Positions 4,012-64,000 of a stretch of 64,000 nt of DNA are shown piece after piece; position 1 is the stretch's first letter, and the number at the start of each line of letters is the position of its first letter. The notes below the pieces were generated by a model, which saw only the letters and a list, made by a program, of their open reading frames with translations, did not search any database and had not been told where the DNA came from. The position numbers and the translations under genes were made by a program. This DNA comes from Liolophura sinensis (taxonomy: Eukaryota; Mollusca; Polyplacophora; Chitonida; Chitonidae). The stretch covers positions 37,187,187-37,251,186 of the forward strand of contig NC_088301.1 of NCBI RefSeq assembly GCF_032854445.1, given 5' to 3'.

Positions 4012-4771
4012 TCAATTATCCAGCTGAACCAATTGTGACAAGTAAGAACAATTAACGATATAATTCGTCCGCTGCTTTTGTTCCAATTTTCTTCGATATG
4101 ATTGTAATATCGCCAAAATGTGGTGTTTGATAGTGAAAATCGAATAGACAATGCCATTATGGGTGCCAGTGTCCGCCATTATGTGAGCCTGATGTATTAT
4201 GGACTGTTGAAAGGTTATAGCTTTATTCCGTGAAATGTAGAACTGTAGCTGTTTTCGAGGACTACCTATTTCCGTAGTGTATAGAACTGTTATAGCGGTT
4301 TCAGTGCATGCCGCCAAAAGCGTAACACCGTTCTCCCCGGGCAGCGTTGAATCCGAGTCATTCATCATACTGATGAATCATAATGTTTCCTGGTTCTATT
4401 ACTTTGTAGACAAGATATGGCCATAAACTTAGCGTGGATACGGTATAAAGCTATTCTCCCTGGACACTTCACGAGCTATCTTCTCAAGAACTATAACCAA
4501 CTGATAAAGGTTTCAGTCAATACAAAGTGTAACGCTAGGCTATTTGTGTAAAATAAAGCAGCACTGAATAAAAGCATCGTGAATGACATACATTCCTAAT
4601 CTTTGTGTAGCAGTCTAACTCGTCTACGCTTGAGAAAATTAGAACGCATATGTACATATAACTGCACAACTTTTGAGGCTCTGCTCGTGCAAACTCCGCA
4701 TCAAGCTGAAGGAGAGAAAACGGGCCTGTCCGCCATGTTGGCTTCGAATCACTAATATTACCAAGACAAAA

Positions 4772-4877
4772 ATGGCTTGCACCGTACTAGAAAACTTAGG
4801 ATCAAGGAAGCTGTATGCTTTGGCGGCCGGCTTAACTTTGTTACTGGGAGTATTCGTCTTAGTTGGAGCTGTCCTTG
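4772..4877 (+). CDS. wls: wntless copy A exon 1 (outer first exon)
   Basis: Residues 1-35 plus one base. Begins [14 protein letters not shown] and continues into a hydrophobic segment, matching the cytosolic N-terminus and first membrane span of Wntless. Donor G|GTAAGT. Phase 1 matches exon 2 (G+CA gives the Ala before PSPSN). It lies outside the duplicated block and is diverged from the first exons at 6434 and 43427. Confidence 0.85.
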
Positions 4878-7800
4878 GTAAGTACAAGCTATACTTGGGT
4901 ATGCTAAGAGCAAATATAATAGTTAATTATGTCTGCTGGACTATATGTTCATCAGACACTGCAGTGTAGAAAACAGACCTACATAACTTACAGTGTTACT
5001 TTTTTAAGTTTGACACAAAGTATTCTGTGGGTCACACAAGTAAGCTGAGTTGAAGTAAAAATGGTTTTCTTTGACTTGTGTTTTGTGACTCCGTACATAC
5101 ACAAAGTATTTTCACGTATGGCGTTAAGCAACTGATAAAATATACATGAACGAATGTGTATATTGTACATTAACTGTCGACACGCGAATGTCTATACAGG
5201 AGAGGTTTTGTGTGAGTTACATAATACAGTTTTTTAAGATGGTACACTTATACGGCCCAAATCCATACAAAGTTGTGTTATCACATCAAGGTTAGAGGTA
5301 CGAATACTTATTTTGGGGGCTATTTTGGCCTGGTTTTTTATTTATTTATTTATTTTTATTTGTATTTTTTTTGGTCTGTCTTCCTTTTGGTATTGGTATC
5401 ATTTTGTATGACACACTAGCACTTTTTTACCTTTGGTATGGGCTTTAGGGCTTTTATGATACAAGAGGATGAACTTGAAACTCCCTTATTCTTGAGTACA
5501 GCAATTAACAACAATCACTGAAATCAATAAATAAACTGGGATGCCCTGGAAAGTATTATATGTAAATCTTGCATGGTTTTGTGACGGAAAGTGATTTGTT
5601 TTCAAGTTGCAGATGCTTGTAGGGGAGTGTATTGCAATTTTAAGTTCGATTGATGTGTAGATAATATATTTAGTTTAACTGATTGTCTGTAAATGTGTTA
5701 CTACTTAAACAAGTTTCTGGATCTTGTGTTCACACGAACAACTTAATTCATTCAGATTTAATATGGGGCCATTCTTCCCATGAGTACACTTTAGACACAG
5801 TATTTATTTTTTTTAAAAAGTACAATTACTTGCGGTCTGAGAATGATGATATGAACACACCTCACCTAAGGTTTTCACGCCTACCAGCACAACGTTTTGT
5901 TAGAAATACAATTTTGACTAATATGTGTTCAAAAGTGTATCACTTCCTCCCCTGTGTATCAGATGGTTATCTGAATTAAACTTGCAATTTTAACCTCATA
6001 CTTTTACAAATGCCCGTCGTCTGCTACAATCTATAAAGGTTAAAGTGCTATCATACAACAGGGGTGACGTCATTAACATTACTGTCAACATCAAAATGAA
6101 AATATAACTTCTAAACTCTTGAGGCAGTGTAGCCAATATATTACCAAATTTTTTGTAATTTGGAGACAAAGATGGTTCATTATATTTCAAACTTGGTATA
6201 ATTTAAAGAAATTTGTGAGAAAATCCCCACCCCCATCCCTCTCTATAAGGAGAGTGTTTTGTTAAAATGTCTGAGGTGGAGCTATTATACAAACTCGTAC
6301 CTTGGCCATGCTGTAAGATATCACTCACTGAGAGGTACGTGTGTATTAGAAGACGATTCAGGATAACTTGAGGCGGAATATTGTCTTAATTGTCTCAGCT
6401 TCTTCAACATATTGTAGCTTATCAACGTTAAAAATTGCAGGGGTCGTGCTAGAAAATTTAAGTTCAAGGAAACTGTATGCCTTGGCAGCCGGTCTGTTTT
6501 TGTTGCTTGCTGCATTCTTTTTCGTGGGAGCTATCATTGGTAAGTTACTTTTCGTGGCCTTATGTGTACCACCACGGTATTTGTAATGCACAAAAATCAG
6601 TCAATCAGTTAACCTCTGCAGTTATGTCGTCATTGATTGTGTTGTCCGTGATGAATTTATAGGTGTTTCAAGTCTGACATTACATTCAGAGGTCAGTCTC
6701 AACAGGTCTTCTCATACTGGACTTTTTTTATTCTTTTTTTAATTTCTTTTTTATACTATTATTATTATTTTGTGAGAGGAAAACCATCACGTGAAGAAGA
6801 AGAGTCATTCTACAGTAACTGCAATATTTATGTCACAGGACATTTGGAGTGATTTGTGTTGGGATTTGAACGCCTTTCTCGACAGCATATCTACGATCTG
6901 CATGTGTCACATACTGTTCACTTGTAAATGCATGAAGATTTAAAATTAATTACATTGTACTGAACATAAACGGCCTCAATATCGGCTCAATTGCTATGTC
7001 ACCAGTCCGATTGTATATTTTCCGCCTTCAATTTAAAGTGCTAATTATGAATAAATGCTGTTGATTTTGTCCTGGTCTATTACTACTACTCTTACAGCCT
7101 AAGTATATAAAAACACGCAAAACTATCATAACGACCAGTAAATTATGATTTGAATTCATGTCACTAGTTTTTATGTCAGTGGTGTTACCCAGACTGGCAT
7201 GAGCACCAAAACAAAGAGTACTCCCTCTTGTTGCAAATCTCTGCCACTAGAGGGCGCAGTGAGTATTGGCGCGGTTTTTGGTAAGAAGCGTGGCGGACCT
7301 GTTGTCGGCGAAGTGTGAACAAATGCGGAAAACTCAGGGCAAGGCAAGTGCGAGTTTTTTTTATAGGTCATTGGTGTTACCACCATTCAACAGGTCTAAT
7401 TTAATAACAATATAAACTATTTAATCTAGGGCATTGGCCGGTTCGTCTTCTCACTAGATTGCCATTCATGTCCAGGCCTCCATCTTATGCAAGGGAGTAA
7501 TCATTATTTTTGTTCGAAATGTCTGGTGTTACCAGTCAGTGGTGTTACTAGGTTATGTGTAACACCACTGACATCAAAGTCACACCACTGACTTTAAGAC
7601 CAAATGCGCTAATCTTTCATGCCATGGCTACTTGCAGATTACATTATGGGGCGCATAAGCAACGCCGAGAAGCAAACACTGTATAGACAGAGGCATGATT
7701 CGGATCCTGAGCGGCGAGCTGAGTATTTATTGAAGAAAAAGCAGAAGTATGAAGCGGATAAAACATCAGGAAAGCGCCAAGGCATAAATAACAAGACTCC

Positions 7801-20100: not shown

Positions 20101-23100
20101 TTCAGCGGACATAAACATTAGTCAGGTACTGTATTTCAGTTTAATGTTAAGGTTCATTTACTCTGACCTACTTGCCTAATTTACATTACAGCTGGTGCAA
20201 AGCTCACGTGTTTTGCCAAGAGATGGTCATCATAAATTCAGCAGATAATATGCACATAACTTATTTATTTATTTCATTGGTGTTTTACTCTGTACTCAAG
20301 AATATTTCACTTATACGATGATGGCCTAAATTGTGGTGGAAACAAATAATTTATCTGATTGAGCAGTTCAAGTAAAACTGAGCATCAATCTGTAATCCAT
20401 TACGTTAATTTCAAGTGACTTGTAGGGAATTGTCTAATATAGTGCTTTACTATAAAATGTCATGCCATATATGTACTGTGTATTATGCAGTATATATATA
20501 CATATTACTTACATGGTTTACCAGGGCCTTGGTTCAATTATATTTCAGATCTTTTACAAAAGTGTTGGTCAGTGTGTGCATTGTCCTGCCTTTTGTCTAA
20601 TCAATTGACTTTTTTTTTTTATAGCACCATCCCCATCCAATGTACAGCAGATTTTGGGAACAAATTGTATTCTGCCAAGGAACAAAGATTTTTGGGAACA
20701 TTGGTCTTTCCCACGTGGAACAGGAAGGTGTGAAAAAATTTCATCTTTCGATGATAAAATTATACAGAAAGAGAAGATCGTAACACAAGATGTTGTTTTC
20801 TCATTCTTGATTCCTGGTGTGAGGGATAACATTCAGCTGACCATGACACCCTGGTTTCAGACCATTCTTGGCATTTTAATGATGGAGTTGTCATACAACC
20901 CACAAAATGAACACAGTAAGATCATAATGTTGTATACTTAAATACTACTGAACCTACAGGTATCTTTTTTATGATTTTAAAGTTTTTGTTTAGAAAAAAT
21001 GTTTCTGTTTTAATATGTACAAATGTACATGCAATTTTTATGTGAAATTGTTTTAATTTGGTGATGTAATTATTGTGGCTCAACATCCTATTTTATTTTG
21101 TAGTTATGCTATTTTATGGTGACATGTTTAAATACAACATTTAAATTAATTTGGATGGTGATTTTCAGACTGGTTCTGATGAAGAAAGAGAATTTGCCTA
21201 TGCTTACCAGATATCCCCTCTGTTTTTGAAGAGCAAATGTTACTATATTCTCCATTGTTGTGTCATCTGAACATAATCATCCTATCCTGAACCCCTGATA
21301 GTTCTCCTATAAACAGTGGTAACAATTGATGGGCACAATCAAGTATTTTTACTCTAACACCTCTGAACTAGTGTTTTTTTTTTGGTTTTTGTTTTAGAAA
21401 GTGATGATTTAAGACTAGAACTCAAGCTCGGGTATCGCAGTATTTCAGACGAACCGTCAGACTGGAAAAGCTTGGCTAATTCAACTGAATCTCGAAAACT
21501 GGAATGCACAATGGGCCCTGAAGAGGTAGGTCATAGAGTCATTTAGGAGAATTGAGATTTTCATGCTGTAATCCAGTAGGTGCGCTAGAGGTTTTTGGGG
21601 TTGAGTATTATTTTTTGCCAAAAATCTCTGGTATAACCTCTTTAAATCATTATACCCCTGCAATAGATCTGGAGAGGACAGGGAGGTGTAATGGATTCAT
21701 GATGTCTGGTGGTCTGTCAGTTTTTGTCTCTGTAAACACAATTTTGTCCACTGCAGCAATTCTGTGGAAATTCAAACACATCTTCCCCATGATCTAAACT
21801 TGTACTTGTATAGTTTTAATACAATGTAGTTAAAAAGTTACCACCCTTGAGGTACTTAGTATCAGACCTCTAGCTAGGATTTATGAAAGGCATGGGGGAT
21901 GAGCGTATAATCATAATGGCTGGGGGTCCAGGGGCTGCAGGTCCCCATCCGCCAAGAACTTGCCACTGTTGGAGTTGGCCATATTGCCATTCAAAACCAG
22001 TTTAGATCTAAAGTCATAGTTTAATATATGTCAATATTAATAACGTGTCCCCCGTGGAAAGTTTATTTCCTATATTTTTTTAATTATTTTATTTTTGTGA
22101 TTTCCACTGCATCAAATACAAATAGCACCATGGACATAAATGTTATTTGTTCAGAAATTATTACTAAAAGTATTGGGTACTGCATTTGAGACAAAATGGT
22201 CCAATGACTGACATCACTTAAGTTATTTGTAAAATTCATTCCATTAGAATTCTGTTGTTTTTTTTCTCAGAAGGTACCAAAAAAATTCATTTTCTTTAAT
22301 AGTTTTGACTGGTAAGCTTGAGGAGTATGTAATATAAAGATATTCTTATCCTAAAAGATTGTATTAATCTTCAATACAGAGGGCCCACTTGTTAGTTGTC
22401 GCTGTTGCTTTGACAGGTGAGTTCATCCAGTTTGTGAAAAAAGATCGAACAGACTTTTTCTGTGTGGATTACTCTTCGATATCTGGAGGGAAAAAATTGT
22501 CCGGCAATCGAAAGTGACCAGCCAATGAAAGTATTTACAGTATTGTTTTGCAGAAAAAGACAGCAAATCAAATTAGAACTACAAAGCAGTTTCGGCCCGT
22601 GTTCAGGTTGTTTGTTGTCGGCATTATCTTTGTACACTGTCACATGGGAGACAGCTCAACTATATCTAAATGTACAAAGTCTCGGGGAAGTCGTTCCCAG
22701 TGCAGCAGAAACAATCAAGTCATATTTGTCCTGTTTAACTCAGTGTTAAAGCAATAGGATAAAGATGCATTTGTGGAAAAAGGTGTTTCATTTAAATATT
22801 TTTAGCTAGCAAACAACTTCAGGTATAGGGAAATTTTACTGCAAAATATGAAGAGAATTAGTCAGATGGTCTTTGCTGTAGCCAGCGCACAAATTTAAAT
22901 AAATAATAACTAGAACTGCAAAGCAGTTTTGGCCGGGTTGCACGTTGTTTGTTGTTGTAGTTATCATTCTACGCCATCAATTAGAAGACAGCATAGCTAT
23001 ATGTAATCACACAACTGTTTCAGGAAGTCACAGACAGTGCAGGAGAAAGCATTAAGTCACATACCATAAGCCTAGTCCAGTTCCCATCTAACTCTATGTT

Positions 23101-26100: not shown

Positions 26101-29100
26101 TCATATGACTGAAAAATTGTTCAGTGCGATGTTAAACCCCAAGCACTCACTCACCCATTAGTCAAGGAAATGTACCCACTTCTGGCTTTGAAGATGTCAC
26201 TTCCTGTTTTGCAAAAATGGCATTTTTGGAATCGGTGTCCAAAACATCATCAGATAAAACTTTTTGCAGGACATAATCATAAGAAGTGTAGAAATTATTA
26301 GCTAAGAAAGGAAATTTGTGTCACATTACATCTGTACCCAATTGCGAGCTTGTACAATTTTTAACCAAGAAAGTTCTCATTCTCAAAATTCAGTTTAAAT
26401 TACAGCTCAGTCACATCAGCCATTCTGGAGAAGATTTTTTAAGATTTTGTGAAAATTCAAGATGGCCACCAAATCTCCCCAAAAGTTATGGTGCACAACT
26501 TCAAGTTCTACAGATAAAGATATTAGAATTTCATAAACTGTTTTCGCTGTCACAGTTTTGCTAATAATAATAATAGAAATAAACTAGAACTGCACAGCAG
26601 TTTCATACAAGGTTGACATCGTTTATTGTTGTAATTGTCATTCTACACCATCAAATAGAAGACAGCATAGTTATATGTAATTGCACAATTGTTATAAGAA
26701 ACCATGGACAGTGAAGCAGAATACATTAAGTCTAATACCAGAAACCTAGTCCAGTTGCCATTTAACTCGATGTTAAAGCAACAGGATTAACATCTGTTTC
26801 TAAAAAATATCAAAAGTGGTGTTGTCATTTAAACACTTCCAGTGAGAAAATTATTGATCGTAGCTCAAATCCGTTTGCATACTACAGAAAGAGCATGTCT
26901 AGGGTTACAGGTCGGCGCAACTTCACATTTGTAGCTCTTTTTTGCAATTAAAAGACACCAACCTAAAGACCTGCTTAATGCACCCACTGCAACACCACCA
27001 TATGCCCCTACTGGCTTTAGAATAGCCATGAAGGCTTCCAGGGCACAAGCTCCTCGGCCGTAGATCCCTTATAATCCTAACAGACTAACAGATACAAAAG
27101 CGATTCAAAGTCAAATGTCTTGAACCCCTACTAATCTGAATGGTAACAATAGGTGTCCCGCAGGACTACCTTAGTTTTTTAGATGCAGGGCGAACTGCAC
27201 TGTGGCTTCACAGAGACATGACGGACCTCCTGATAGTCATGGCGCTGTGCCATGCGATCAACAGCCAACTAGAGGTCTGTAGAGGTCTACAGATGTGAAT
27301 ATGCAGTTCATGGCAAATTTCATGGGGTGCTGAATTTACATGTACCTATTTCACTATATAGTGTAATACACCTTAGGAACATGTTAAAACAAAGTCTTTG
27401 ATAAATTCATTTACAGGTCTTTTTGAATAATAGAAACTTAGACTTAAATTGCCAGCTCTCATATCATCTATTGACTGCACTGTGATGACTGAGTGGTCAA
27501 AGCATTTGCCTTGTATGCCGGAGACGTTGGGATCAAAACCAAGTCTTGTCTTACATAATATTTATATACTGTCCATGCCTAACATTGGTAGAATTCATGT
27601 TTCCTTGCTGTAGTGTCATGTCTTCCCTGGTATGTTGACATGAAATGAGGCAGTATCGTAGATATGTATGCTGATATTGAAATGCTGTGACTGCAAAAGT
27701 CTGTTTTTAAAAATCTTTTCAGAAGGTTCCTGGGGCCAGGTATCACTGTTCAATGTTGTCGTTGTTTGAGCTGGGAAGCTGTGCTCATGAGTTATACCTT
27801 CTAAACCTTCGAATACCAACTCACAGAGACCTCAATAAGGACATTGGAGAACTGAAGGAAATAACGCTTGTGGTCGGTTTGATCTTATTGCTTTTATAAT
27901 GGCCTTAATTAAAGTAAAGAGTTGTCTTGCATATATACATATTAATAGATGTATGAGTACAAGACAAAACAAAAATATAAAGTAAATTTCTACTTTTCAC
28001 CACTTTTTTTTGCCAGTCTGCATGTATGTTTGATATCCTAATGCTATATGACTTTCCTTAATTTATTTATATTTGATTAGTGTTTTGTACTCTACGCATG
28101 AGTATTTCACGTATACGACGGGGGACAGCATTATGGTGGGAGGAAACGGCTGATGGAGGCATGATTCTTATAACATGGTTGATTCTGTTTTCAGGTTATC
28201 CACCAAAATGGAGGCTTCACCAAAGTCTGGTTTTCCCTAAAGACCGTTATGTTTCCTGTGGTCCTGATAGCTTTAATTTGGTATTGGAGAAGAATCCGAC
28301 ATCTTAATCGAGATCCAACTCTTTTGGAAAAGTAGGTTGTTTTTTATAAGCAGTTAAACGGTCTTTAATATTTGTAAAAGATTATGGATCACTTTTGGGG
28401 AAATGCCAGCTCATAAATAATAAAAGACATGTGATTCAGCAGCATTGAAAGGTAAACAGTATAGGATGATGGTTTTTACCCCCCTTGGAACTGGCGTGTG
28501 TAGACTGGATACGATCAGATAAGACTTAAAAACATAGAATCATGAAAAATACGTATTGAACAGAAAAACAGCATATGTCGTTATTATGGGTATATCTTTA
28601 AGGGCTACTTTTCAGATGGCATTGAGTGTATATGTTTTCCATATGGCCCCGTATTGGAGCTTTTGTGGTGATCACGTGTTTCGGTGTCGACTAATGTAGC
28701 AACATTTCAAGATGTGTTGGATTTATCATATTTATCATGGCTTCCTATGTCCAAATTTTAGTCACACAAAATCAGAGCCTTTGGGGCCTAGCCAACTGAT
28801 AAATGGAGATTGTATTCCAGTTCTAGATTTCCTCCCACCATGATGCTGGTCACTGTTGTATGAGTGAAACATTCTTGAGTATGGTATAAAACACCAATCA
28901 GATAATTAAATATTCCTATTATATTGATTTATGCCCCCACCCCTTCCTCTAGAAAAAATGTATGATGTATGTATGTATGTATACATACGACAATTCAATA
29001 ACCATTAGGCTTTCTCAGGTGCTAAATGATATGTTCAGATAATAAATAAATATTTATAAAAAAATGATTGTCGTGATCTTTATATTTACTACATTTACTA

Positions 29101-29623
29101 CATAACGTAAGAATTATGGCTAGGATGCATCTCTGGCTGACTACAGTTAGAGCTTGTGGGGACTTGGCCTAGTTTAAGAAAGTTGGTCATTTTGGCTAGG
29201 ATAGTTCGACATCGCTCTACTTTCCATTACAGTGGATATTAAAGATATTGAGCTGTTTCATTGTTAAGAGAGATGTACAGATAGTAGGGTGGAAGAAAAC
29301 CATACATTCATTCTTTTATTGATTCATTTTGTGTGTCTACTGTCTTGACCATGTGCCATGGATGCATTGGGTAAGTTTTGTGGTTGATATTGATTCTTTA
29401 TCTACAAAAAATTTTGTGAGATAACTATAAATTGTCAGATCTTTTTTTAATCATTGTGGTTGCAATTTTATATAAAATTATTAAGTATGGATTTTTGTGA
29501 CTTTTTTTTTTTTGGAAGGGGAGGGGGTGATGAATTTAGTTTTCACTACAACTACATTTGTACGAACTGCGTTCGTTCTTAATACATGTAAAGTATAGCT
29601 TGTGGAAAGATACACATGTACAT

Positions 29624-29662
<39 letters not shown>

Positions 29663-32600
29663 GCTTTTACAGGACACTTTTTGCCCTGGGCATCACAATC
29701 ACTTTCCTGAACTGTAAGTATGTTTTCAATAAATGCTCTAAATCCATGAATGAATTAACAATGACTGTGTGAATAATCATTTTTCACAACTGTTGGTCCA
29801 AGTTTGCCTACCCTTCTCATTGTAGCCAAATTTACACATTGGTATCTGCACTGTTACTTAGTTTCAGTGTCAACATATTCTTCTGTTTGCTAGTGGACTG
29901 TTTTTACTTTTTTGTATGTTTGACTGGAGGGAAATGCAGATGTTAATTTTAATTAATTAATTTTTTCTTCAAATTATTTTAGCATTTGTTTGTTTAATTT
30001 CATAATAAACTATTCATGCATTAGAATCTGTCAGCAGCATTGCTTCTATGTTCACAATTCTAAATTTTTGATGTTTTCTAGCATTTTTATTTGATATTGT
30101 CTGCTTACCTGGTCACTGGAAATCTGATAATCACATATATGCATACTGGCTTCCTCTCCAGTCGTGTGTGGATAGGTCTGGCAACTTGCGAATGGTCCTG
30201 GCTTTTGCACTTCTCTCCTACCATAATGCTGGTCGCTGTCATATTTTAAGTGAAATAATGTTGAGTAGGGCGTAAAACCTCTATCAAATAAAGATTACAT
30301 GTATGTTAAAATATCTTTAGAGTAAATATTACATCAATCTTGTGAACAATAAGTGAAATATTTGTAAGGATTGATTTTTATAGGTTTGGCTACACTTTGA
30401 TCGGATTTAAAGTGTATCAATATAATGAACATTGTGTTTCAGTTCCTGTCGAGTGGTTGTCCATCTGGACTGAAACTCCCTTCATGCTGTTGTATGTTGA
30501 TATCAGACAGGGATTGTTCTCAGCCATGCTTCTTTCCTTCTGGCTCATCTTTGTTGGTGAACACTCAATGGTAAGGCAGATGAGAATTATTTATTTATCC
30601 TATGGGTTTCAAGCCTATCACATGTTTAGAGGATTTCACTAAGTTTTAAATTTTGGGTGAAGCTCTGGTGTTAACAAACCCACCAAATCAAAAGTTTAAG
30701 ATGGATAATTTGTTTTTTAACTTAAAGGTTTAAGAAATTTAAATAGGGTATGAAAGTAAGTCTTGTGAGACTTCCCAGTGCATTGTGTAGAAGTTTCAAG
30801 AAAAAGAAAATGTTGTCTGACACAACCTGCCCCAGCACTCAGCATAGCACAATAGACAAACTATTAGTTGACTAGGTGTCAGCATGGATTGGTGTGCCAT
30901 GCCAGATACTGTCCACACTGCACAAGTAAATTTGTCCTTATTCAAACCGGCCTGCTGACAAGAGGGACCCTCACTGGCTTAGACATTGACCAATGAGTAT
31001 GCATGTTTGAATCCAGTTTGTTTCATTGTTTCATTGGTTGAGCTGTGCTTTAGGCCAAGAGGTTTGTCATATAGTGTTGAGTTTGGTGGGTTTTAAACTC
31101 TGGTCATTCCTGTTTCCTCCATCCATAAACCTAACTACCGTCATATATAAATGAAATATTATTCAGTATGGCATTAAACGTCAATGAAACAAAATAAACA
31201 TTAACACAAAATATTCTTCAGCACTCAGACCCCTTCAAAATGCATACTAATAATTATTGGTTCATTCAGATGATTATACACATACAGTGTGATGATTATA
31301 CAGATTCAATGTGATGATTATACAGATTCAATGTATCAGACTGCGCATGACTGACAAGTTATTTTCCTCGTCAGATGCACATCTCTATATACAAATAAGC
31401 TATTGTGAGGGAACTTCAATATTTTATTTCTTAGATATATTTGGTATGTGCTTTGTACAGGTGTCTGCTTTTACAGAGAGTAAGTATATTGATCTTCAGT
31501 GTATATGAGATAGCAACAGAACTCTTTGAGGAATGCATCAAGCTTGGCTCGTTCTGACTGTATGATGGACATTAGTTGAACATATTGTATTTTGTTCCTC
31601 GAATGCAGGATCAGATTCAGAGAAAGACACTGGCCTCCTATTGGGTACATTTGAGTGCTGTGGCATTTGGTTGTATTGCCATGTTTGTCTTCAAAATGTG
31701 CGAATGGTAAGCATGATGAACTACCTTACAATTTAAATTGAAAAAAAGAGAAGACAAACTTGAAAAGTTACTTGATAATTTTTACATTAACTCTCGGCTT
31801 CCTTAAGTAAGGGAATTTTGTTATCCCGTCCTGGATAGTATTTCAGTATGCTTCGTTTACATTTGGATTTCATACTCTTTAGTTGGTAAAGAAGTTAGTG
31901 ATGAACCTTTTGAGACAAGGATACCAAACTTGATGGACAACATGAATTGGGTCATCAATTTCACTTGGTTCATGAATGAGGTCTTTGTGTATTCTCTGCA
32001 CCTGGTTGCTTGTCAAGCAAAGACATCAACATCTCTTCCTGTTATGATACAAAATATGCAAGTTGTGTTTAAATGTGTACATTTACTTGTTTGCAGGGGT
32101 ATTCAGCTGAAGAATCCATTTTTCTCCATCTGGGTCACAGATGTGGGAAGAAATATGGCTGTATCCGTTATCAACTAGAAAATTATCTGATTTTATATTA
32201 ATTGTGGGCAATACAGAGGACCTTTGTTACTGTCATTGCAACTGATATCACAGATTAAGGAGACATATTGCAGACGGCATAAAAATTGTGCTGTTATTTT
32301 AGACATCCCCTTCCAGATGTCTCCTGACATGTATCTGACTTTCGGTGAACAATCAAATGTTCAGTTTTATGCGTGCTTTCCCTGCTTGCCACTCAAATCA
32401 CTATATTTAGAAACATGGCAGAAGGGTGTCCTTTTTGACAGGGTTACCTTCCCTTGTACTCTAGGCGATGTTCAGGAACCGCAAATGTCAGATTAGTCAA
32501 GACTAGGTACTGTGTCTTAATTATGCCTCCTGCCATATAGATGGTTGGGAATTACAAATATTTTTGATACATTATCAGTGGAATGGAAGATCATATTTGG

Positions 32601-35600
32601 ATTACTAGATTTATAATTGTGTTCAATCTGTCATATTGTTTACATGTAGTATCCACGAGTGGACATTGCATTGTGGGAATATTTATGTTGCCTCATTTGC
32701 ATGTTATCTTGTTGGGCAGACATTTTAGACCAGTGGCAGATTTCCCATATAATTTTCTTACTTGGCAATTTCAGAAAATATATATCCAGGATGTTTAGTT
32801 AGGAGTCAGGTGCCACATATTTTTGTATTTAGCTGAACCAACTCAAAAATTCTCAATTGCTTTGCACTGCATTTGATATAATGATAGGCTAAACTCATGA
32901 TTGTCATTAAATTTGTGAAGTAAGCATTGCACAAGTTGATAAACTTTCTTATTTTTTAAGAAAATTCTATTATACATCTGCCCAGATTCAGCCAGCAGTA
33001 GTAAATAAATGTGACAAACAATTCTAAAGCATCTGGTCAAAGAAGGTGAAGTCTTGGGGCTGGTTATTTTAATTGAATTTAATAATTCATCACTAGTTTC
33101 AGTTATTTACTTGACACTTGAAGTTGTATTTGTAGAACTAATATAAAGTTTGGGTGATTGAAAGCGTTTACAAGATTCTCAGTTTTGACTCAGATTGGAT
33201 AGGTCTGCACCTTACAGTAATTTGTTGATAAATGTTAGGATATGATTTGACTTTATTAATTCCTTGACTCTTTTGTTAGCTGGCCTTCATCATCATCGCT
33301 GGAATATCTGCCTGTTTGTACTTCCTGTTTCTCAGCTACATTATCAACAAAGTGTTCTGCAACATCAGCGCTAAAAAGACGGCCCTTCCTAGCATGAGTA
33401 GTGCCAGGAGGAAGTGCTACTCTGGAAGTCATGAGAAAACTTTGTTTACAGTAATTTTGATGTATTTTGATGTATTAAAAGTTTATCTATTTGTTTATTT
33501 GATTGAACACTGTACTAAAGAATTCATCATTCATAAGATAGTGGTCAGATTGATGAGTGGAGGAAACGAGTGTGCAAGGATAAACCACCAAACTTTGACA
33601 AGTTACTTTTTAATTTTGCCATGATTGACATACAGACTTGCATGCCATATTAGTCAATGACAGGTGCTCTTCAGCTTAAGTAAAACTGCAAACATTCCCA
33701 TAGGTTTAGACTGTTTTTGTTAGTAAGATGAGTGAATATCTGTGCATATCTGCAAATTAACTGACCAAACGTTCTTGAAAGTGCATAATAGGGTCAAATC
33801 CGTATTTGTATTTTTGTTAGACTTTGCATTAGCATCAAGTCAGTTATTGACACCACATATATGTGTATGACATCCTACCAGAAGTTTGTGACAACTACGC
33901 TGTTCTCTTTGTGCTCATGAAAGGCATTTTAATCTGTTTGTAGGGGATTATTTACCGCTTCAAGTTCCTGATGATCACCACCCTGCTGTGTGCAGCATTT
34001 ACGGTCGTCTTCTTCATCTTGAGTCAAGTCCAAGAAGGTCATGGTCACTGGGAGGAAAACTCCTCTCTGGAGTACACATCAGGCTTCTTCATAGGTGAGA
34101 CACTTTAAGCTGTATGCCTTGTACTGCACAAAATTTCCCAGATTTCTCCATTGTTTTGGATATTAAAATATATACATGTACCTATTGCTGAACAATACTG
34201 ACAATACTGAGTTATATCAGTCTACGGAGAATAATGTCCTGGAGATTTTTATGAGCACCATATTCTGATTCTCATCAGCAAAAACCTCCTACCTTTTCAT
34301 ACCTGTGAAATGGTTGAAAAACTAAGAACAATACTTGATCGTTATTTAAACAGGTGTGTACGGTATGTGGAATGTGTATGTGCTGGCTCTGCTTGCCCTG
34401 TACGTCCCTGGGGAAGAATGTGGTAAGTCATCATTGTCATCTCCTTCCTTCAAGAAAAGATCAATTTAAGGGTATGTGAGAAGATTATTCTATATGAAAA
34501 ACTTAAATGATCTGATTGTACAAACAGAATTTGTAGCAGTTATTAACCTTGCTTGTCTAGATTTTGCCCAACAGTCAACAGATTCCCAGAAATGTAACAG
34601 GTTACATTATGCATGTTGCAATAAAAACATTTAATTCCATGTTATGGGGGACCTCTGTGGCCAAGGGGTTAGCACGCGAGTGCGGCGCAATGACCCATGA
34701 GCGTCTCAGCAATATTGTCACAGTTCAAGTCCAGTTCATGCTGGATTCCTCTTCCACCGTACGTGGGAAGTTCTGTCAGTAGCCTGCGGATGGTTGTGGG
34801 TGTCGTTCGGACTCTGCCTGCTTTCCTCCCACCATAACAGCAATCAGATAAATGAATAAATAAATTGGGACTGCATTGCTGTTTCTGTCTTCCATGCACA
34901 CATTCACCAAATCGGTTATTACCTTGACAAACCAAAACCCTTACATACACTTCTTTTAAGAAAAACAGCAAAGATGCTTCACTATCTGGGTGTTTCTATC
35001 TTTGAAATTGATGTAAACTCTTTCAGAACATAACTGTGACCACACCCAATCTGTTCAGTTCTGAGTTAGCTTTGGATTTTGCATTGTTGATTGAGACTTT
35101 TACAACTGACAATAAAGTCATTGTGTCGCAAAACAGTTTCTACAACTTTGTTTACACATTGCACGGCAAACTTTAAAAGACCAAGATATTTGATGTACTG
35201 ATTACCCGGCTGTATATAGCTTATACCATGGACAACGCTTTCTTGATAATTCGGTTAACATGATATACAAGAAATATTGTAAACACCGTGTTGTCCACAA
35301 ATCAGTCAACATCTATAGTTTTGTATAGTGGAAATGGGACTTTTTTGATAACAGGTAAACCATACCATTGCCAATCATGGTAAATACACATGACGCTTAT
35401 ATGCCCTTCAGTAGCTGTGACAAACGAGGTGCAGGTTCAATCCCGACCTTGAACAAGGGTTTTGTGGCGAATGGTTACAAAAAAAAAATACAAAAAAAAA
35501 ACCAGGCCACATAGTACGCAGTTATTTATGTATACAGGGCTAGTCTTTCCTATAAGACTGACGATTTTCATATTACTTTTTCACAAAAAAAATCTTACTG

Positions 35601-36270: not shown

Positions 36271-36442
36271 TAGAGGGTGTAGACTTTGAACTTTTTTCAG
36301 GGCATGTCCTTGTTAAAGGTGGACAGTTGCAGAAAAGCTTCCAGTCAAGACAAGTCTTTGATTGTAAAGGACTTATTATATATGTTCATGATACAATATG
36401 CAACACATTCATCCTTTGAAAATAATTATACAATTCTTGGTC

Positions 36443-36448
36443 AATAAA
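36443..36448 (+). terminator. possible poly(A) signal of wntless copy A
   Basis: AATAAA 173 bases after the stop codon. Chance AATAAA is common in AT-rich DNA, so this is tentative. Confidence 0.3.
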
Positions 36449-36449
36449 G

Positions 36450-39106: not shown

Positions 39107-39295
39107 TTAATCATCCTGTTGCAACTGTTGGAAAAGAACTTGGAATGCCTCCTTGAACTGTAGAAACTCAACTTCTATATCTCTTATTCGATCCAAAGTT
39201 GCGAAAAGCTCATTTAACATTACCTGGATTTGATGTGTGTCATTGTCATAAATGGCAATCATCTCCTGTTGCAAAAAATCACATACCTTACCTGC
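39107..39295 (-). CDS. syce2: syce2-like exon 3 (terminal)
   Basis: 62 codons and TAA. Acceptor CTTTTAG|GCA on the - strand, phase 0. Encodes the second half of the predicted coiled coil, from AGKVCDFLQQ to LQQDD. Confidence 0.78.
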   Translation of the reverse strand, partial: AGKVCDFLQQEMIAIYDNDTHQIQVMLNELFATLDRIRDIEVEFLQFKEAFQVLFQQLQQDD

Positions 39296-41358: not shown

Positions 41359-43426
41359 TCACACACATATGTTTGGCAATGATCTGACAGGTCTAGATGG
41401 AACACAGAAAAAGATAGAACTTTTTTATGTTTCAAGCTACATGTATTTATGCATTCTTCTTACTTTCTTAACCATTGGTCTCTTCCACAAATATAGTGTG
41501 CTTATTTGTAAGTCACACATGAGAGAGTTTGTCAGTCACTGGTAAAATGTTTGTGGTTTACCCTGGTTTCCTCCACCATGAAACTGACATTCATTGCATA
41601 AGTAACAAATAGGTAATTTACAGTTCAAACTTCTTTGTCACTAAAGGTAAAGACAGTCCCACTGTATCGTGTGACCTGTCACAAATATTAGCCAACAGTC
41701 ACCGATCACCTGTTTGTTTGTGTTCCAGAAGTACACTTTACTCTTCTTTCCTTCAGGAACTACTTAAGTTCACAAATATTTAGCACCTCAGTTTTCTTCC
41801 TGTTTTGTCTACTATAAATATCTTTGTGTGCAACCTTTGTCAGACTTCCAGACTTCTGTTGTAGTAAACTTAGCTGGTTCCCTCCCCTTGACATGTGATA
41901 GAGCTAAATGCTTTAGCCAAAGGGACAGGCACAGGATGAATTCATTATTGCTGATCTAAAGCACTCTTTCAAACACAGCAATGGAGACACCCGATAGTAG
42001 CTCATCATGATGACGTCACATTAAAGACGGTAGACGTTACGCTACAATCCATTCCTGACGTAAAAATGGCTTGAGGTCGTGCTTCACACTTGCACCACCT
42101 CGCGGGATTGAAAAATATGCCTCCTTGATCCCATTTATATGTAGCCATTAATTTTCTATTTGTGCGTAGCTAGTGGTGTACATTAACTGTAACGTCAAAT
42201 CCTAGCACTTGGACCTCACAACAATCCTTTCATATGCCATATCTTGTTGATAGGCTTCCCCCGCGGTGAACATTTAATATACATATAATCATCCAATCAT
42301 AAGTAGATAGCTTTGTACTGAATGTGATTCAGTAACGGAGACTATGAGGGAACTACACTGGTAGCAATTGTGATCAAATATAGTTGTCTAAAATTTTTGG
42401 CAGGTCACATAACACACTAGCTCTTTTTTACCTTTAGTATTGGTTATACGGCTTTAGTGATACACAAGGATGAACATGAAACTCCCTTATTCTTGAGTAC
42501 AACAATTAACAACAATCACTGAAATCAATAAATAAACTGGGATGCCCTGGAAATGTAAATCTTGCATGATGTCGTGATGGAATGTGATTTGTTTTCAAGT
42601 TGCGGACCCTTGTGGGTGAGTCTATGACAGTTTTAAATTAGAGTGAAGCAGATAATACATTTAGTTTAACTGAATAACTGTAAATGTTTTACTACTAAAA
42701 CAGGTTTCTGGATCACTTATTTTGTTCAACACGAACAACTTAATTCATTCAGATTTAATATGGGGCCATTCTTCCCATGGTTACACTTTAGACACAGTGT
42801 TTATTTAAAAAAAAAAAATAAAATTACGGTCTGAGAATGATTAGGCCTATATGAACACACCTAACCTAAGGTTTTCACGCCTATCAGCATAACATTTTGT
42901 TAGAAATACAATTTTGACTAATATGTGTTCAAAAGTTTATCACTCACCTGTGTATCAGAATGTTATCTGAATCAAACTTGCAATATTCTCTTCGTACTTT
43001 CACAAATTTCCGTCGTCTGCTACAATCTGTAAAGGTTAAGTGCTATCATACACCAGGGGTGACGTCATTACTGTTACTGTCATCATCAAAATGAAAATAA
43101 AACTTCTAAACTCTTGAGGCAGTCTGGTCAATATATTACCAAATTTTTGGTAATTTGAGGGCGACGATAGCTCATTATTTTTCAAACTTGGTACAATTTA
43201 AAGAAATTTGTGAGAAAATACCCCCTCTACAAGGAGAGTCTAAGTTTTGTTAACATGTCTACCGTGAGGTGGCGCTGTTAAACAAACTCGTACCTTGGCC
43301 ATGTTATAAGATATCATTCATTGAGAGGTACGAGTGTATTAGAAGACGATTCAGAATAACTTGAGGCGGAATATTGTCTTAATTGTCTCAGTTTCTTCAA
43401 CACCCTGTAGCTTATCAACGTAAAAA
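41359..43426. promoter_or_regulatory. divergent spacer between syce2-like gene and wntless copy B
   Basis: The two start codons face away from each other about 2.07 kb apart. A perfect TGACGTCA lies at 42011-42018 and another at 43060-43067. The duplicated block begins at about 42412, so the wntless side of this promoter region was imported by the duplication. Confidence 0.4.
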
Positions 43427-43532
43427 ATGGCAGGGGTCGTGCTAGAAAATTTAAGTTCAAGGAAACTGTATGTCTTGGCAGCCGGTCTGTTTTTGTTGCT
43501 TGCTGCATTCTTTTTCGTGGGAGCTATCATTG
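43427..43532 (+). CDS. wls: wntless copy B exon 1
   Basis: ATG intact: [20 protein letters not shown] and a hydrophobic span. Donor G|GTAAGC, phase 1. Closer to vertebrate MAGAIIENMSTKKL at its start than the outer exon at 4772. Confidence 0.87.
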
Positions 43533-46500
43533 GTAAGCTACTTTTCGTGACAAAAATGCACAAAAATCAGTCAATCAGTTAATTTCTGCAGTTATGTCGT
43601 CATTGATTGTGTTGTCCGTGATGAATTTATAGGTGTTTCAAGTCTGACATTGCATTCAGAGGTCAGTCTCAATAGGTCTTCTCATACTGGAATTTTTTTT
43701 TATTTTATTTTTTTTTATATTAATTATTATTTTGTGAGAGGAAACCATCACATATGAAGAAGAACGTGTGGGAGTAAAGACTATGGTAATATGTCATTAC
43801 GTGACACTACGTGCATATTGATGTAATTTTTTCCCCACGGTCACATGCCTTTAATGATTTTTCATTCGTTAAAATTGAATGGGGAGATGTTCAATTTGCA
43901 TACAAAGAAAATTAGCGTAAATAAGACGTTTGTCACTCTAATTTCTGTCATGTGTCACTGTTATATATGAGATTTCTGCATTGTATTATTCCCAGTTCAT
44001 ACATTTTTGAAAGGATTTCTGTAAGTTGTGAAACACTCTGGATTTGAATTTCCATCAGACAGCCGGTCCGGTCTGTAGCTGGTTGCTTATATCACTACAA
44101 AACTCAAGTTGTCCTGCTAAAACCTGGTTTTTAGTCATCTTTAAACCAGATGAACATGGTAAGGGTTGAATGCGCATGTGCGTGTGTCACATGCTTTTGT
44201 CACATGGACTACATCTGCAAAGGGTTAACTCAAGATTTGGCCAGCCTTATTCAGGGAAGCATGAATGAATTGACATCAGTAGTGACATAGAAAGTAACAC
44301 TTAGATATTACCCTAGTCTTTGCAACTTCCACATGTGTAACATCTTGCTAAAACAGATTGGATTAGTTAATGTGAATACGACAGAATCGGCATTTCAGGG
44401 ATCTTTCCGAGTTCAAGCAGATATCGGTGAGACAGGTAGAAACTCCTGTGAACTGACGTTGATAAAAGATGTTATTTTATGGTAGTGGCTGGATTGAATA
44501 CACATCTGTGTGTTGTCTCGTCTGCCCCATTGGTACCTAACGTAAAATCACGTCTTTTAGCTGCAGAAGTTTTCAATGTCTGAACTCGCGAGAACCGTGA
44601 AACACCAACTGGGCTTACATAGCTGATCTTGAATTTAAAATATCGGTGTCAGACTGCAACAAACATTGATTTAACTAATTGATACAAGAAAATATGACTG
44701 CGACTGTCACAAGAAACATAGGCCTTATATAACTGGAATCTGTCCTTGGAAATTCACTCTTCATGCAAAATTTCAAGAAACCTTAAAAGAAATTAAGACC
44801 CCATTTGTTACATGTACAACTATCCCCCAAATGGCAGAGCTTTACTTGATGTTGAATAAAAGATTTGACAACCTTGCAAAGAATATGTGAATTCCAGGTA
44901 TACGTCACTTTAAAGTTGGAAGATTTAGAAGCTTAAGAGCTTATCTATTTGATCAGTTTCATTATGTGATCATGCTTAACTTTATCAAGTTACTCTTCTG
45001 TGGTGTGGTGGAAAAATTGTAACAACCATGAAAGCATAGAGATTCCATCTCTGATGGGTGAGTTTCGTTCAGGTTACAACAATATAAGCCGAATCGGCAT
45101 TTAAGGAGTTCCCTAAATTCATGTAAATATGGACGAGACAGGATTGGGGCTTTCACAAACTAGCACAGATAAAAAGTGAGATTTTACGGTACTTGCAAAA
45201 CTTAATACATATCCCGCTTAGCTGAGTCTGTTGTCCCAACAATGCTCTTAGTAGCTGATGTAAAATCATGCCTTTTATCCGCCTTAGTTCGTACGAGCCC
45301 CACCATGTCTCATCTCAAACTGCGTGAACTTCCAAGCTTCCTGATATGGTGACTCGTCTTATTAGTTTGGACCAAGTCTGAGGATGATAACAGAGATATA
45401 TATGGGGAAACTTGCTTTGTGCTATTGTCATTGCAACCTGTTTCTTTTGCTATCTGCACTGCTGAGAATAAATGCATATGTTGCAATGGCCAACACAGAA
45501 GACAAGGTCTTGCATGCTAAGTTATTGGTAGTGGTTCTGTTTTGTGGTCTCGTGACATGGTTCAGCGTAGAGAGCGTAAATGAGAGTATAGATTTTGACG
45601 GGCATTTCATAGGACTCAGTCATGTTTTGTTTCGCCTGTTTTAGGTAATTATTTATTGTTTCATATTTTTATGACCCCGTTGGAGCATATTAAAATTATT
45701 GGCTACCTTTAGAAAATCAGGAAATAATTGATTACAATGATAGTTAGCATAACCACAGTAAAAAGCATAGGGACACCACAGCAAATATTCATGAGAAGAA
45801 TTTGTAGCCTCTCAGTGGTTTAGCCTTAAACATGGCAAAACATTGGAATGTGCTAATTGTGTTAAATACATGTAATATGAAGTTTCAAAGGTTTGATCTC
45901 TCTTAAAGTTGTGTGTTTGGGCAAAGGTCATGAACACTTCCGATGTCCTGTAAGCAACCAGACACTCTCTCCTTAACAGCTAGACCATCCATGATCTGTT
46001 GCAAAACACTAGTTTTACAATGACGTATAGTCATGAAAGTCCAGGTAAATTTAGAAAATATATTTTCTGGCATGATGCTTGTCTTCCCCTGTCAAATCTT
46101 TAAAGTCTTGGTCAAATTTGTGGATGACTTTAATGGGGACTTTTTGACAATATGGGACATTTGGAAGCATATATTCCATAGTCATCATGGTGAAAAATGC
46201 AGAAATTAGAGTATAATTTTTTTAATTTATTAGCTCACTGTTACAATCTAAGGCAAAGTGTTGTAAGATTGGGGAAAAAGTAGTGTCTGTGCCTGAGTAA
46301 CCTTTTTTGTTTGGGTCAGTTGAGTAAGGTTTTATGTTTGGACCTGCCAGTCTCACAGTTTTCATATCACCATTATGAAACTTGGTGGATATGATGAACT
46401 GGATTTGGACATTTACTCATTTTTATGATCAATTAGGGATGTTTGCATTTTTATTCAAATGTTCAGGTTTTGGGCTGAGCCATATTATCCAAGCCAGTAC

Positions 46501-49500
46501 TATTGGAGGCAGTGGAAAGGTTGTTTTTGTTTGGGTCAGCTGTTGCCACAGTTTTTACACCATCTTGGTGGGAAGATGGGCATGCTTTAAAGACTTCATG
46601 AAATAAATAATAATTTTAAATAATTAGGTATGTTTGTATTTTTATTGAAATTATCAGGTTTTTGACTTTGCAATTTTATCTTAGCCAGTACTATTCAGTT
46701 TTGTTTGCCAGGGTGAGGTTTTATGTTTGGGTCAGATATTCCAACAGTTTTCACGTCATTTTTATGAAATTTGGTGGGAATGATGAACAGAACATGGGGA
46801 TTTACTCATTTTGAATGATTAGGAATATTTTCTTTTTAGCTCTTTTGTTTGTCGAAGTTTTCATGGTATACTCATGAAAGTTCATGAGCTTGATAAACAT
46901 GCTTTGAAGATGTTGAGATTATACTTGATTTTTCTTGGTAAAAACTACCATGTTTTGGACTTGCTGTTTTCACATTGACTTCACAGGTGTATAGTTAGCC
47001 TGATAGTAAGGTTTTATGTTTGGGTCAGCTGTTATCAGTTTGCAACATATCTTCATGAAACATCATGAGCTTGATAAACATGCCTTGGTTGATATACACG
47101 TATGAATTTTGATATTATGTTTGATTTTTTTTTATTGGAATTACCTTGTTTTGTACAAGGGTTTGTATTACAGCTTTCACTGTACATTGAACCCCAGTTA
47201 AGTACGACGTTAAACCCTAAACACTCACTTTAAACATGAACTCCCAACCTTCACACTGTGTGCATGCCATGAAGACACTACCTACTGAATATGAATTTAA
47301 ATGTCCTGTCAACTTAAACGGCTATTTGAAGTGAAGCAATTACCAGCAAGCTGTCGGGTTCCTCATAACCGTTGTTACCTGTAGCTATATGATAATTTGG
47401 TAATGGTATATATGATAAAGCGTTACTGTTTATTAACTCATACTGATTTTAGCTGTAGGGGTTAAACTTCCTGTACCCTTGCCAGGCTGGTTTACATTTA
47501 TCCCTGTCGCCATCATACAGACACACCTCTTCACCTCTTTTCTAGAACTGGTGACTTCTGCCACATGTAAGGTGTTCAGCCTGACAGAAATACCACACAT
47601 TTTTGCCATGGCTTGTATCAAACAGGGCCCTAAAGGATTAAAACTGCTTTTGTGTGTTAGCATGGCACCCCAAAGAATTTGAGTGCACATATACTGTAGA
47701 ATCAGTCTGTTGAACCATGAGGAAAAAGTTCTTTGTTTGCTGGCCAGGTAGACATTTGAACTTACTGGCACCACTCACCCCATGTGTAATGCTCTTCTTG
47801 TGATATTGAAAGTGTTATATGATAGAGGACAAGAATGGCAAATTTGAGTGATATGATGTAAGGAATTTTTATAAACTGAAATCTGCATGTTGAAGTTACG
47901 GTTTTAAGGGAAATGCATGAAAGGTTTTGTTTTTTTTTTAATTTTCAAGGCATATTTTATGGCTCTTAGTTTTTTCTTTATCTCAGCAAGTTTTTTCTTT
48001 ATTTAAGCATTGTTTTTGTAGTTTTCAGCATTTGCATCACAACTGCAGGCTATTTAATATTCATACAGACCACTGGGGCCCGGGAAATCTAGTTCAAAAG
48101 ATACATAAAACGCTTGGTTTCTATTTCTCATTGCAGAGAATTGATGTGGCCTAGCCTATTAAAGTACAAGAAATCTTTTCAGCTTTCTTCTTAGAAACTT
48201 AAAATGGCTTTAAGTTACATCTTTCATGAGAATCTAGTGGTCAGTCTTGAATTATGCAGCCTGCTGATTGATGTCAAAGGTGATAGCTGTCAAAACAACT
48301 TTGTTGGGGGAGAGCCCAAATTAAGGGTGCTAAGCTGGTTCCAGATTCGCAGTATATTCATTGATGACTTCATTTCACAATATTCCCAACTATTGACAGA
48401 AAATATGCATAAAATATAGGGGCTATTAAGAATGGTAAAGTGTGCCTAAAAAATGTTCCCATTTTTTGGGCACATCTTTCTTCATTTTCCTTAAAGCTAT
48501 ACTTTTTGCTCTATAGTACATGTACCCTTAAGCCTTTAAAGCCCTTATTACTCCCCCAAAATATGTGTATGTTGGGACACATCCTTAATTACATATAAAA
48601 ATCAAATGTTTCATGTATCCCTGAAGATTTGCTCTGATGCACTGTATGTACCTACCAATTCTTTCATCATTCATTGTAGTGTCATTTTTCAGTCCTTCAG
48701 ATTTTCCATTTTTCAGACAAAATCATACAACTTTTCGTACATACATGTACATATATACTGTATGTGATTCAGCGGAATAAAATTTACATTAGAATTATTT
48801 ACATCCTTGGTTAATATCACCAATGGCTTTAAATGTCAACTCCTTCAAAATTAGACTAAGATTTCATAGCTCATATTAGATTTGGATTAGAGTCCATGTA
48901 AGAGTTTTTGCATTAACTGTAGTTCTGACTACGAAATATGAAACTATGAAAAATATATAGAACTTGAAATAGTGGATGTGTGAATGGCAAAGGTTTTGAG
49001 TATTTTGACTGATATACACGTACATGTAGGTGTTTACTATTTCAAACAAAATTTTACCTTTAACATAAACCCAATAAAATGAAATACATTTGGTCAAAGG
49101 ATGAATCTTTGTTTAGTTAGTTTAAAGTACAAGATAAAACTTACAAGGTATATACAGTATATGTAGTTTCTTTGTTACCTGTATTTATTGTAGACTGGCT
49201 GTTATATTGCCACAGGCTGTAAAAGGCACACCCACTGTCAATGTTTGCACCCTGGGGCTCAAATGCATGTACCTCACATTTAGGTGAGAAAGCTTTCTCC
49301 CCCCTCACAGGGAATAGTGTTTATGTTTGTTTTATTGCTACTCCTAAGCCTATCCTGAAATAGCACCCTACTTCTTTTTTCTAGGTTGAACTTCCAATAG
49401 GTGCAAGCTATGGCTCCAAACTTTCTGGCATCTCTCTCTGAATTCTGATGAGTCAGTCTTTGATGTACATATAGATCTATTCCTGATTCAATAAACCTAT

Positions 49501-61452: not shown

Positions 61453-61493
<41 letters not shown>

Positions 61494-63886: not shown

Positions 63887-64000
63887 GTATCCTTTATCAA
63901 CTAGAAAATTATCAGATTTTGCCTCAAGTGTGAGCAATACAGAGGACTTTGGTTACCGTCATTGCAACTGATATCACAGATTGAAAAGACATATTGCAGA

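What the first reader, a model, noticed from the sequence alone, without database searches (positions are those of the whole stretch)
4772..6539. Two alternative Wntless first exons, the inner one with its start codon lost
4772-4877 and 6434-6539 are both 106 nt, both phase 1, and encode similar N-terminal anchors. The inner exon has ATT where copy B has ATG. So copy A would depend on the outer exon while copy B depends on the inner type, with different N-terminal membrane anchors and different promoters. This could be reciprocal loss after duplication, or near-cognate ATT initiation.
Basis: partly seen in the sequence, partly recalled or inferred. Interest (0 to 1): 0.75.

Follow-up and report, generated by a model that had tools for sequence, protein, structure and literature searches.

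The report
Half-duplicated Wntless gene, complementary exon damage
An animal's Wntless gene (needed to secrete Wnt signals) carries an internal tandem duplication in which each copy is broken in a different place, so in this assembly the full-length ATG-started reading frames found all begin at the outer first exon, use the first copy's early exons and finish in the second copy's late exons.

Summary
In detail: 4772-4877 (ATG) and 6434-6539 (ATT) are 106-nt, phase-1, Wntless-type first exons, and copy B's inner exon (43427-43532) keeps ATG. The two exon types are old (dS about 0.96, dN about 0.20). The outer one lies outside the duplicated block, so only copy A has it. But A and B are not two complete genes. 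The duplication ran from between the two first exons to intron 12, so the single last coding exon (E13, beyond the window) follows B only. Copy A has also lost the inner start, the exon-10 donor and a conserved C-terminal stretch. Of 25 full-length chains enumerated, 8 are intact with ATG: all start at the outer exon, use A's exon 2 and cross into B after one of exons 2-9; 8 more are intact but start at ATT. I favour the outer promoter with A-to-B splicing. The main rival: B is the real gene and this haplotype has a null or misassembled exon 2. No RNA, reads or relatives were available; ATT initiation is untested.

The parts
4772..4877 (+). outer first exon (E1 outer), ATG, 35 codons + 1 nt, donor TTG|GTAAGT; lies upstream of the duplicated block, one copy found in the genome
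5408..34837 (+). duplicated block, copy A (pairs with 42409-64000 and on to 66624 outside the window)
   Evidence: segment divergences
6434..6539 (+). inner first exon of copy A, ATT in place of ATG; 2 of 106 differences from copy B
20625..20915 (+). exon 2 of A, 291 nt, the intact one of the two exon 2 found
21398..21525 (+). exon 3 of A
27723..27872 (+). exon 4 of A (weak donor GTCGGT; GTCAGT in B)
28195..28331 (+). exon 5 of A
29673..29713 (+). exon 6 of A
30443..30570 (+). exon 7 of A
31609..31706 (+). exon 8 of A; K and W where B has E and R in the MCER stretch (human D and R)
32097..32160 (+). exon 9 of A; U12-like donor GTATCCGT (GTATCCTT in B)
33280..33423 (+). exon 10 of A; U12-like branch TTCCTTGAC at 33260; donor lost (TCT|GGAAGT, TCT|GTAAGT in B); 5 residues differ from B
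33944..34094 (+). exon 11 of A; 4 residues differ from B
34354..34422 (+). exon 12 of A; 69 nt against 87 in B, the APSHK stretch shared by B and human is missing
42409..64000 (+). duplicated block, copy B (continues to 66624 in L002)
43427..43532 (+). inner first exon of copy B, ATG
52589..52881 (+). exon 2 of B, 293 nt: two 1-nt insertions against A, frame lost
53364..53491 (+). exon 3 of B
59557..59706 (+). exon 4 of B
60028..60164 (+). exon 5 of B
61504..61544 (+). exon 6 of B
62272..62399 (+). exon 7 of B
63335..63432 (+). exon 8 of B
63823..63886 (+). exon 9 of B, donor GTATCCTT; exons 10-12 of B and the single exon 13 follow at 64976-65119, 65653-65803, 66065-66151 and 68312-68424 (outside the window, L002)

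Best explanation
One Wntless gene with two old alternative first exons underwent a tandem duplication whose breakpoints lay inside the gene: one between the outer and inner first exons, the other in intron 12. Copy A therefore keeps the upstream outer exon but has no last exon; copy B keeps the last exon but has no outer exon. Both copies then decayed, in different exons (the lesions are shown, their history inferred). Inferred: the working transcript starts at the outer exon, uses A's exon 2, crosses to B after one of exons 2-9, and ends in the single exon 13, giving a 545-residue Wntless. The inner promoter is a relic: in A it lacks ATG and in B it leads into a frameshifted exon 2. One possible aid to the crossing is that intron 9 looks U12-type. 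U12 donors should not pair with U2 acceptors, so if exon 10 of A is not recognised (its donor is gone), exon 9 of A could join only exon 10 of B.
For: Block limits 5408-34837 and 42409-66624; outer exon and exon 13 each found once, exons 2 and 10 twice. Lesions: inner-A ATT; E10A donor GG; E12A 18 nt shorter without APSHK; E2B 293 nt against 291. Enumeration of 25 full-length chains (3 starts): 8 are intact with ATG, all outer start with A through one of E2-E9 and then B; 8 more are intact but start with ATT; 9 are broken. The chain of outer exon, A exons 2-7 and B exons 8-13 matches human Wntless at 3.4e-162 over residues 1-520 and covers PF21883 1-183 of 183 and PF06664 1-247 of 247. In E8-E11, 11 residues differ between copies; B equals human at 5, A at none, neither at 6, by my reading. 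1-nt indels between copies occur only in exon 2 (2 in 293 nt of E2B; 0 in the other 2960 nt of modelled coding exons, P 0.008; the 18-nt difference in exon 12 is not counted). Outer and inner exons evolved under constraint.
Against: No RNA evidence. By the exon list, every one of the 8 crossings passes over 11 exons and the inner exon of B, several with normal splice sites. One further ATG-started frame is open: inner B with exon 2 skipped, 448 residues without the 97 of exon 2. Damage in different exons is not in itself improbable, since B has one frame-broken exon. Exons 3-7 differ at only 1 of 584 sites between copies against 180 of 10041 noncoding sites (P 0.0003; 0.03 if only one copy were constrained), which suggests both sets were in use until recently, or gene conversion. 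A's exon-9 U12-like donor is itself altered, and the U12 motifs are no commoner in the window than chance (4 matches against 5.0 expected, 3 against 1.3), so that reading rests on their place at the exon ends. The E2B lesions could be an allele of this individual or an assembly error.
Confidence: 0.42

Rival explanations
1. Copy B is the real gene, driven by its inner promoter and ATG and ending in exon 13. Copy A is a decaying partial copy without a last exon, refreshed in its middle by gene conversion. The two insertions in B's exon 2 are a null allele carried by the sequenced animal, or an assembly error.
For: B has the ATG inner exon, open exons 3-13, the human-like residues and the APSHK stretch. 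A has no exon 13, a lost donor and a lost start. Noncoding divergence is 6.0% and 8.9-9.4% towards the ends but 1.2-3.2% from 15.4 to 31.4 kb, as conversion would give, and that would keep A's exons 2-7 clean.
Against: E2B has 2 frameshifts and 4 substitutions in 291 sites, about the noncoding rate (expected 5.2). No 1-nt indel is seen in the other 2960 nt of modelled coding sequence. Mitochondrial copies of this assembly show no indel in 3 of 4 6-kb comparisons and one 8-nt gap in the fourth, though that contig may have deeper coverage than nuclear ones.
Confidence: 0.35
2. ATT at 6434 works as a near-cognate start, so copy A has two active first exons.
For: Context A at -3 and G at +4 (rule recalled). 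Inner A differs from inner B at 2 of 106 sites against 115 of 1217 noncoding sites (P 0.002). At the difference outside the start codon, outer and inner A have alanine and inner B valine, so A's exon body shows no change of its own there.
Against: The start codon is the one change assignable to A's exon. The conservation may mean that the loss is recent, or that the region was converted; the sequence directly downstream also differs less (12 of 230). No ribosome or RNA data.
Confidence: 0.08
3. In A the inner exon has turned from a first exon into an internal 141-nt cassette: the outer exon joins an acceptor-like site ending at 6398 (TTGTCTTAATTGTCTCAG) in frame, runs through 6539 and on to exon 2.
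For: The join is in frame by my reading of the phases; 28 codons upstream of ATT are open in A, while B has TAA two codons before its ATG where A has TTA.
Against: It would put two membrane anchors in a row, which should disturb topology. One join in three is in frame by chance. The acceptor-like letters are also present in B.
Confidence: 0.04
4. The two copies are haplotypes or repeats wrongly placed in tandem by the assembler.
For: Middle divergence of 1.2-3.2% is in the range of allelic differences in variable marine animals (recalled).
Against: No N gaps in the window and its 10-kb and 20-kb extensions. The 7.6-kb spacer resembles A's upstream and B's downstream flank only at the block edges and in short repeat-like pieces. 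Divergence is 6-9% towards the block ends and 18% in the last 231 bases, though that last piece also matches repeats. The outer exon and exon 13 were each found once.
Confidence: 0.08

Closest known systems
Wntless / Evi / GPR177 (WLS)
   Same: Full-length match of the joined protein to human WLS and both Pfam domains; the first residue of exon 2 aligns with human residue 36, so the first exon supplies the same N-terminal anchor.
   Different: Two first-exon types, and an internal duplication with damage in each copy. A 2023 review (PMC10112924, passages seen) says the human genome has one gene with three transcript variants and that primate variant 2, with another C terminus, cannot sustain Wnt secretion; the passages shown say nothing on duplicated exons.
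Intragenic tandem duplication with alternative or mutually exclusive exons, some enforced by U2/U12 incompatibility
   Same: Repeated exons of equal phase; a U12-like intron that should join exon 9 only to an exon 10. [quoted passage not shown]
   Different: Here a run of 12 exons is duplicated and the copies are damaged in different exons, rather than kept as a choice of one exon.
Tandem gene and pseudogene pairs with gene conversion (CYP21A2/CYP21A1P type; recalled)
   Same: Low divergence in the middle and higher towards the ends; one copy bears several lesions.
   Different: Neither copy is complete here, and only one last exon was found.

Membership tests
Wntless (WLS) | full-length similarity to solved human WLS | tested here: met
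   joined protein, 3.4e-162, residues 1-520 of both
Wntless (WLS) | WLS GOLD domain and WLS-like transmembrane domain | tested here: met
   joined protein, PF21883 1-183/183, PF06664 1-247/247
Wntless (WLS) | needed for Wnt secretion | not testable with these tools
   needs the animal or a cell assay
alternative first exons of one gene | two first exons with equal phase before the same exon 2 | tested here: met
   both 106 nt, donor scores 9.0 and 9.0 with a recalled matrix, phase 1 into exon 2
alternative first exons of one gene | transcripts starting at each | not testable with these tools
   no RNA data held
alternative first exons of one gene | start codon in each | tested here: not met
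   inner A has ATT and no in-frame ATG until codon 109; inner B has ATG
U12-type intron (intron 9) | donor RTATCCTT (consensus recalled) | tested here: met
   B exact at 63887, right at the end of exon 9; A GTATCCGT; 4 matches in the window against 5.0 by chance, so only the place speaks for it
U12-type intron (intron 9) | branch TTCCTTRAC close to the acceptor (consensus recalled) | tested here: met
   TTCCTTGAC at 33260-33268, exon 10 of A starts at 33280; same letters before exon 10 of B; 3 matches in the window against 1.3 by chance
two complete tandem Wntless genes | each copy has its own start, intact exons and last exon | tested here: not met
   one exon 13 found; E10A donor GG; E2B frameshifted

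The most novel reading that the evidence does not exclude
A conserved animal gene survives only as a splice-made mosaic: after an intragenic duplication the back half of one copy and the front of the other were lost, and every full-length mRNA starts at the outer first exon and crosses a stretch of dead exons, perhaps held to the right crossing by a minor-spliceosome intron.
Probability: 0.3. Interest if true: 0.78.

Novelty: new variant of a known kind. Interest (0 to 1): 0.52.

Why it matters
If real, it shows reciprocal loss acting within a gene, exon by exon, with splicing rejoining the working parts. It would also make the outer promoter the only ATG source of a full-length Wnt-secretion protein in this animal. 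The two old first exons, kept apart by selection, are a separate and simpler point: they would give Wntless two membrane anchors and probably two promoters.

Tried and rejected
Considered: two complete genes (rejected: one exon 13 found, E10A donor GG, frameshifted E2B). Inner B with exon 2 skipped: in frame and open, 448 residues, but without the 97 residues of exon 2; thought unlikely to work, not tested. A read-through double protein: stops at codon 571 of 1013. Further copies elsewhere: none listed for exons 1, 2, 10, 13, with the tool's warning that only the best candidates are scored. The C1 hits to PF06664 gave weak partial matches to the typed human Wntless and were not pursued. Long open frames in intron 1 of A gave no Pfam match (0 of 5). 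tblastn with human tail pieces printed nothing; exon 13 came from an acceptor-and-stop scan of that call and was chosen by eye because it holds EELQLT, as human does, so it is the least certain exon. A first exon table had the exon 10 boundary one base too long and hid the donor difference; corrected. One script stopped with an error after printing the proteins. Papers: 9 searches; searches returned none; some searches returned listings, of which passages of PMC10112924 and PMC5740500 were seen. That nothing like this is in print rests on those searches only. The donor matrix and the Kozak and U12 rules are recalled. The 25 chains are single-crossing, full-length chains of my choice, not all possible splice paths. 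The donor of exon 4 is weak in both copies, so that boundary is uncertain.

Full report
What was checked. The two exons exist as described. Both are 106 nt and end before GTAAGT; the outer starts with ATG, the inner of copy A with ATT, and the inner of copy B, at 43427-43532, with ATG. The window is part of contig C7 of a 609-Mb genome of 632 contigs. I added 10 kb upstream and 20 kb downstream, because copy B runs past the end of the window; coordinates above 64000 below refer to that extension.

Age and constraint of the two first exons. Outer and inner A differ by 15 synonymous and 13 nonsynonymous changes over 27.7 and 74.3 sites, dS 0.96 and dN 0.20, start codon left out. So the pair looks much older than the duplication, whose noncoding divergence is 1.2 to 9.4% in the eight segments (and 18% in the last 231 bases of the block, a piece that also matches repeats), and both types have been kept as protein-coding exons. 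Inner A and inner B differ at 2 of 106 sites against 115 of 1217 in the noncoding sequence of the same segment (P 0.002), though the sequence directly downstream differs less (12 of 230). One difference is in the start codon. At the other, outer and inner A share alanine and B has valine. The inner exon of A was therefore held until recently, or converted.

Shape of the duplication. A pairs with B from 5408 to 34837 and from 42409 to 66624. The outer exon lies before the block and was found once in the genome. The last coding exon, 68312-68424, lies after the block and was found once. This is what a tandem duplication with both breakpoints inside one gene gives. Exon 13 was found by a scan for acceptors followed by a stop in the right phase, and chosen by eye for its EELQLT, which human Wntless has too; tblastn with human tail pieces found nothing, so it is the least certain exon. 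There are no N gaps, and the spacer 34838-42408 resembles the flanks only at the block edges and in short repeat-like pieces.

Damage in each copy. Copy A: ATT at 6434; K and W in exon 8 where B has E and R; exon 9 donor GTATCCGT where B has GTATCCTT; exon 10 donor GG where B has GT; exon 12 shorter by 18 nt, without the APSHK that B shares with human; no exon 13 found. Of 11 residues that differ in exons 8-11, B equals human at 5, A at none, and neither at 6, by my reading. Copy B: exon 2 has 293 nt against 291 through two 1-nt insertions, and 4 substitutions. No 1-nt indel is seen in the other 2960 nt of modelled coding exons (P 0.008), so a general error rate does not explain them. Exons 3-7 differ at 1 of 584 sites against 180 of 10041 noncoding sites (P 0.0003; 0.03 if one copy only were constrained).

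What can be made. I enumerated 25 full-length chains: outer or inner-A start with A used through exon n (n = 1 to 12, n = 1 meaning none of A's exons 2-12) and B after, and inner-B start with all B. Eight with the outer start (n = 2 to 9) are intact and start with ATG; the same eight with the inner-A start are intact but start with ATT; nine are broken. Inner B with B's exons stops at codon 104. Two further chains were translated: inner B without exon 2 is open (448 residues, lacking 97), and a read-through double copy stops at codon 571 of 1013. The outer exon, A exons 2-7 and B exons 8-13 give 545 residues that match human Wntless at 3.4e-162 and cover both Wntless domains. These are single-crossing chains chosen by me, not all splice paths.

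How it most likely works. Shown: the anatomy, the lesions, and the lack of a full-length frame within either copy. Inferred: that the outer promoter drives the working transcript, and that splicing crosses from A to B, passing over 11 exons. A possible aid is intron 9, which has a U12-like donor in B (63887) and a U12-like branch before exon 10 (33260); its donor scores -2.5 as a U2 donor in both copies with a recalled matrix. The two motifs are not enriched in the window (4 matches against 5.0 expected, 3 against 1.3), so the case rests on their place at the exon ends. A U12 donor should pair only with a U12 acceptor, and exon 10 of A has lost its donor. Against this, A's own exon 9 donor is altered at one place. 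U2/U12 incompatibility is reported as a rare feature of mutually exclusive exons (PMC5740500, passages).

The main rival. B may be the real gene and A a partial copy refreshed by conversion, with the E2B insertions a null allele or an error. I give it nearly the same weight. That A and B are damaged in different exons is not strong evidence by itself, because B has only one frame-broken exon. The mitochondrial copies show few indels (none in 3 of 4 comparisons, an 8-nt gap in the fourth), which speaks for a careful assembly, but they are not nuclear genes.

Known context. [quoted passage not shown] primate variant 2, with another C terminus, cannot sustain Wnt secretion (PMC10112924, passages). 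That bears on A, whose C-terminal end is altered. Searches for Wntless with alternative first exon, or with U12-type intron, returned no paper.

Noticed in passing
63887-63894; 33260-33268: Intron 9 of this Wntless gene looks U12-type (donor GTATCCTT in B, branch TTCCTTGAC before exon 10).
   Followed up: partly
8417-10666 and 13865-14896: Long open frames in intron 1 of copy A; the second looks like a tyrosine recombinase to me (recalled); no Pfam match for 5 of 5 frames. Neither stretch pairs with copy B. Probably mobile-element insertions.
   Followed up: partly
L008-L012 (G000 C99 and C632): Contig C99 holds several tandem mitochondrial genomes; the four 6-kb stretches compared differ from the separate one on C632 by 18 substitutions each: two mitochondrial haplotypes or a nuclear array.
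   Followed up: partly
15422-31439: Noncoding divergence between copies falls to 1.2-3.2% here against 6-9% on either side, with a step near 31.5 kb, as gene conversion would leave.
   Followed up: partly
19424-19742: Near-perfect palindrome (95.6%), with an inverted match at 52025-52200 in copy B.
   Followed up: no
6399-6539: An acceptor-like site makes inner exon A a possible 141-nt in-frame internal exon; the stop codon two codons before the start in B is TTA in A.
   Followed up: partly
4730-4741: CCGCCATGTTGG just upstream of the outer exon resembles a YY1 promoter element (recalled motif).
   Followed up: no
L003, window coordinates 74937 and 78961: Frames that look like exons of a GAK/AAK-type kinase (recalled), perhaps the next gene downstream.
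   Followed up: no
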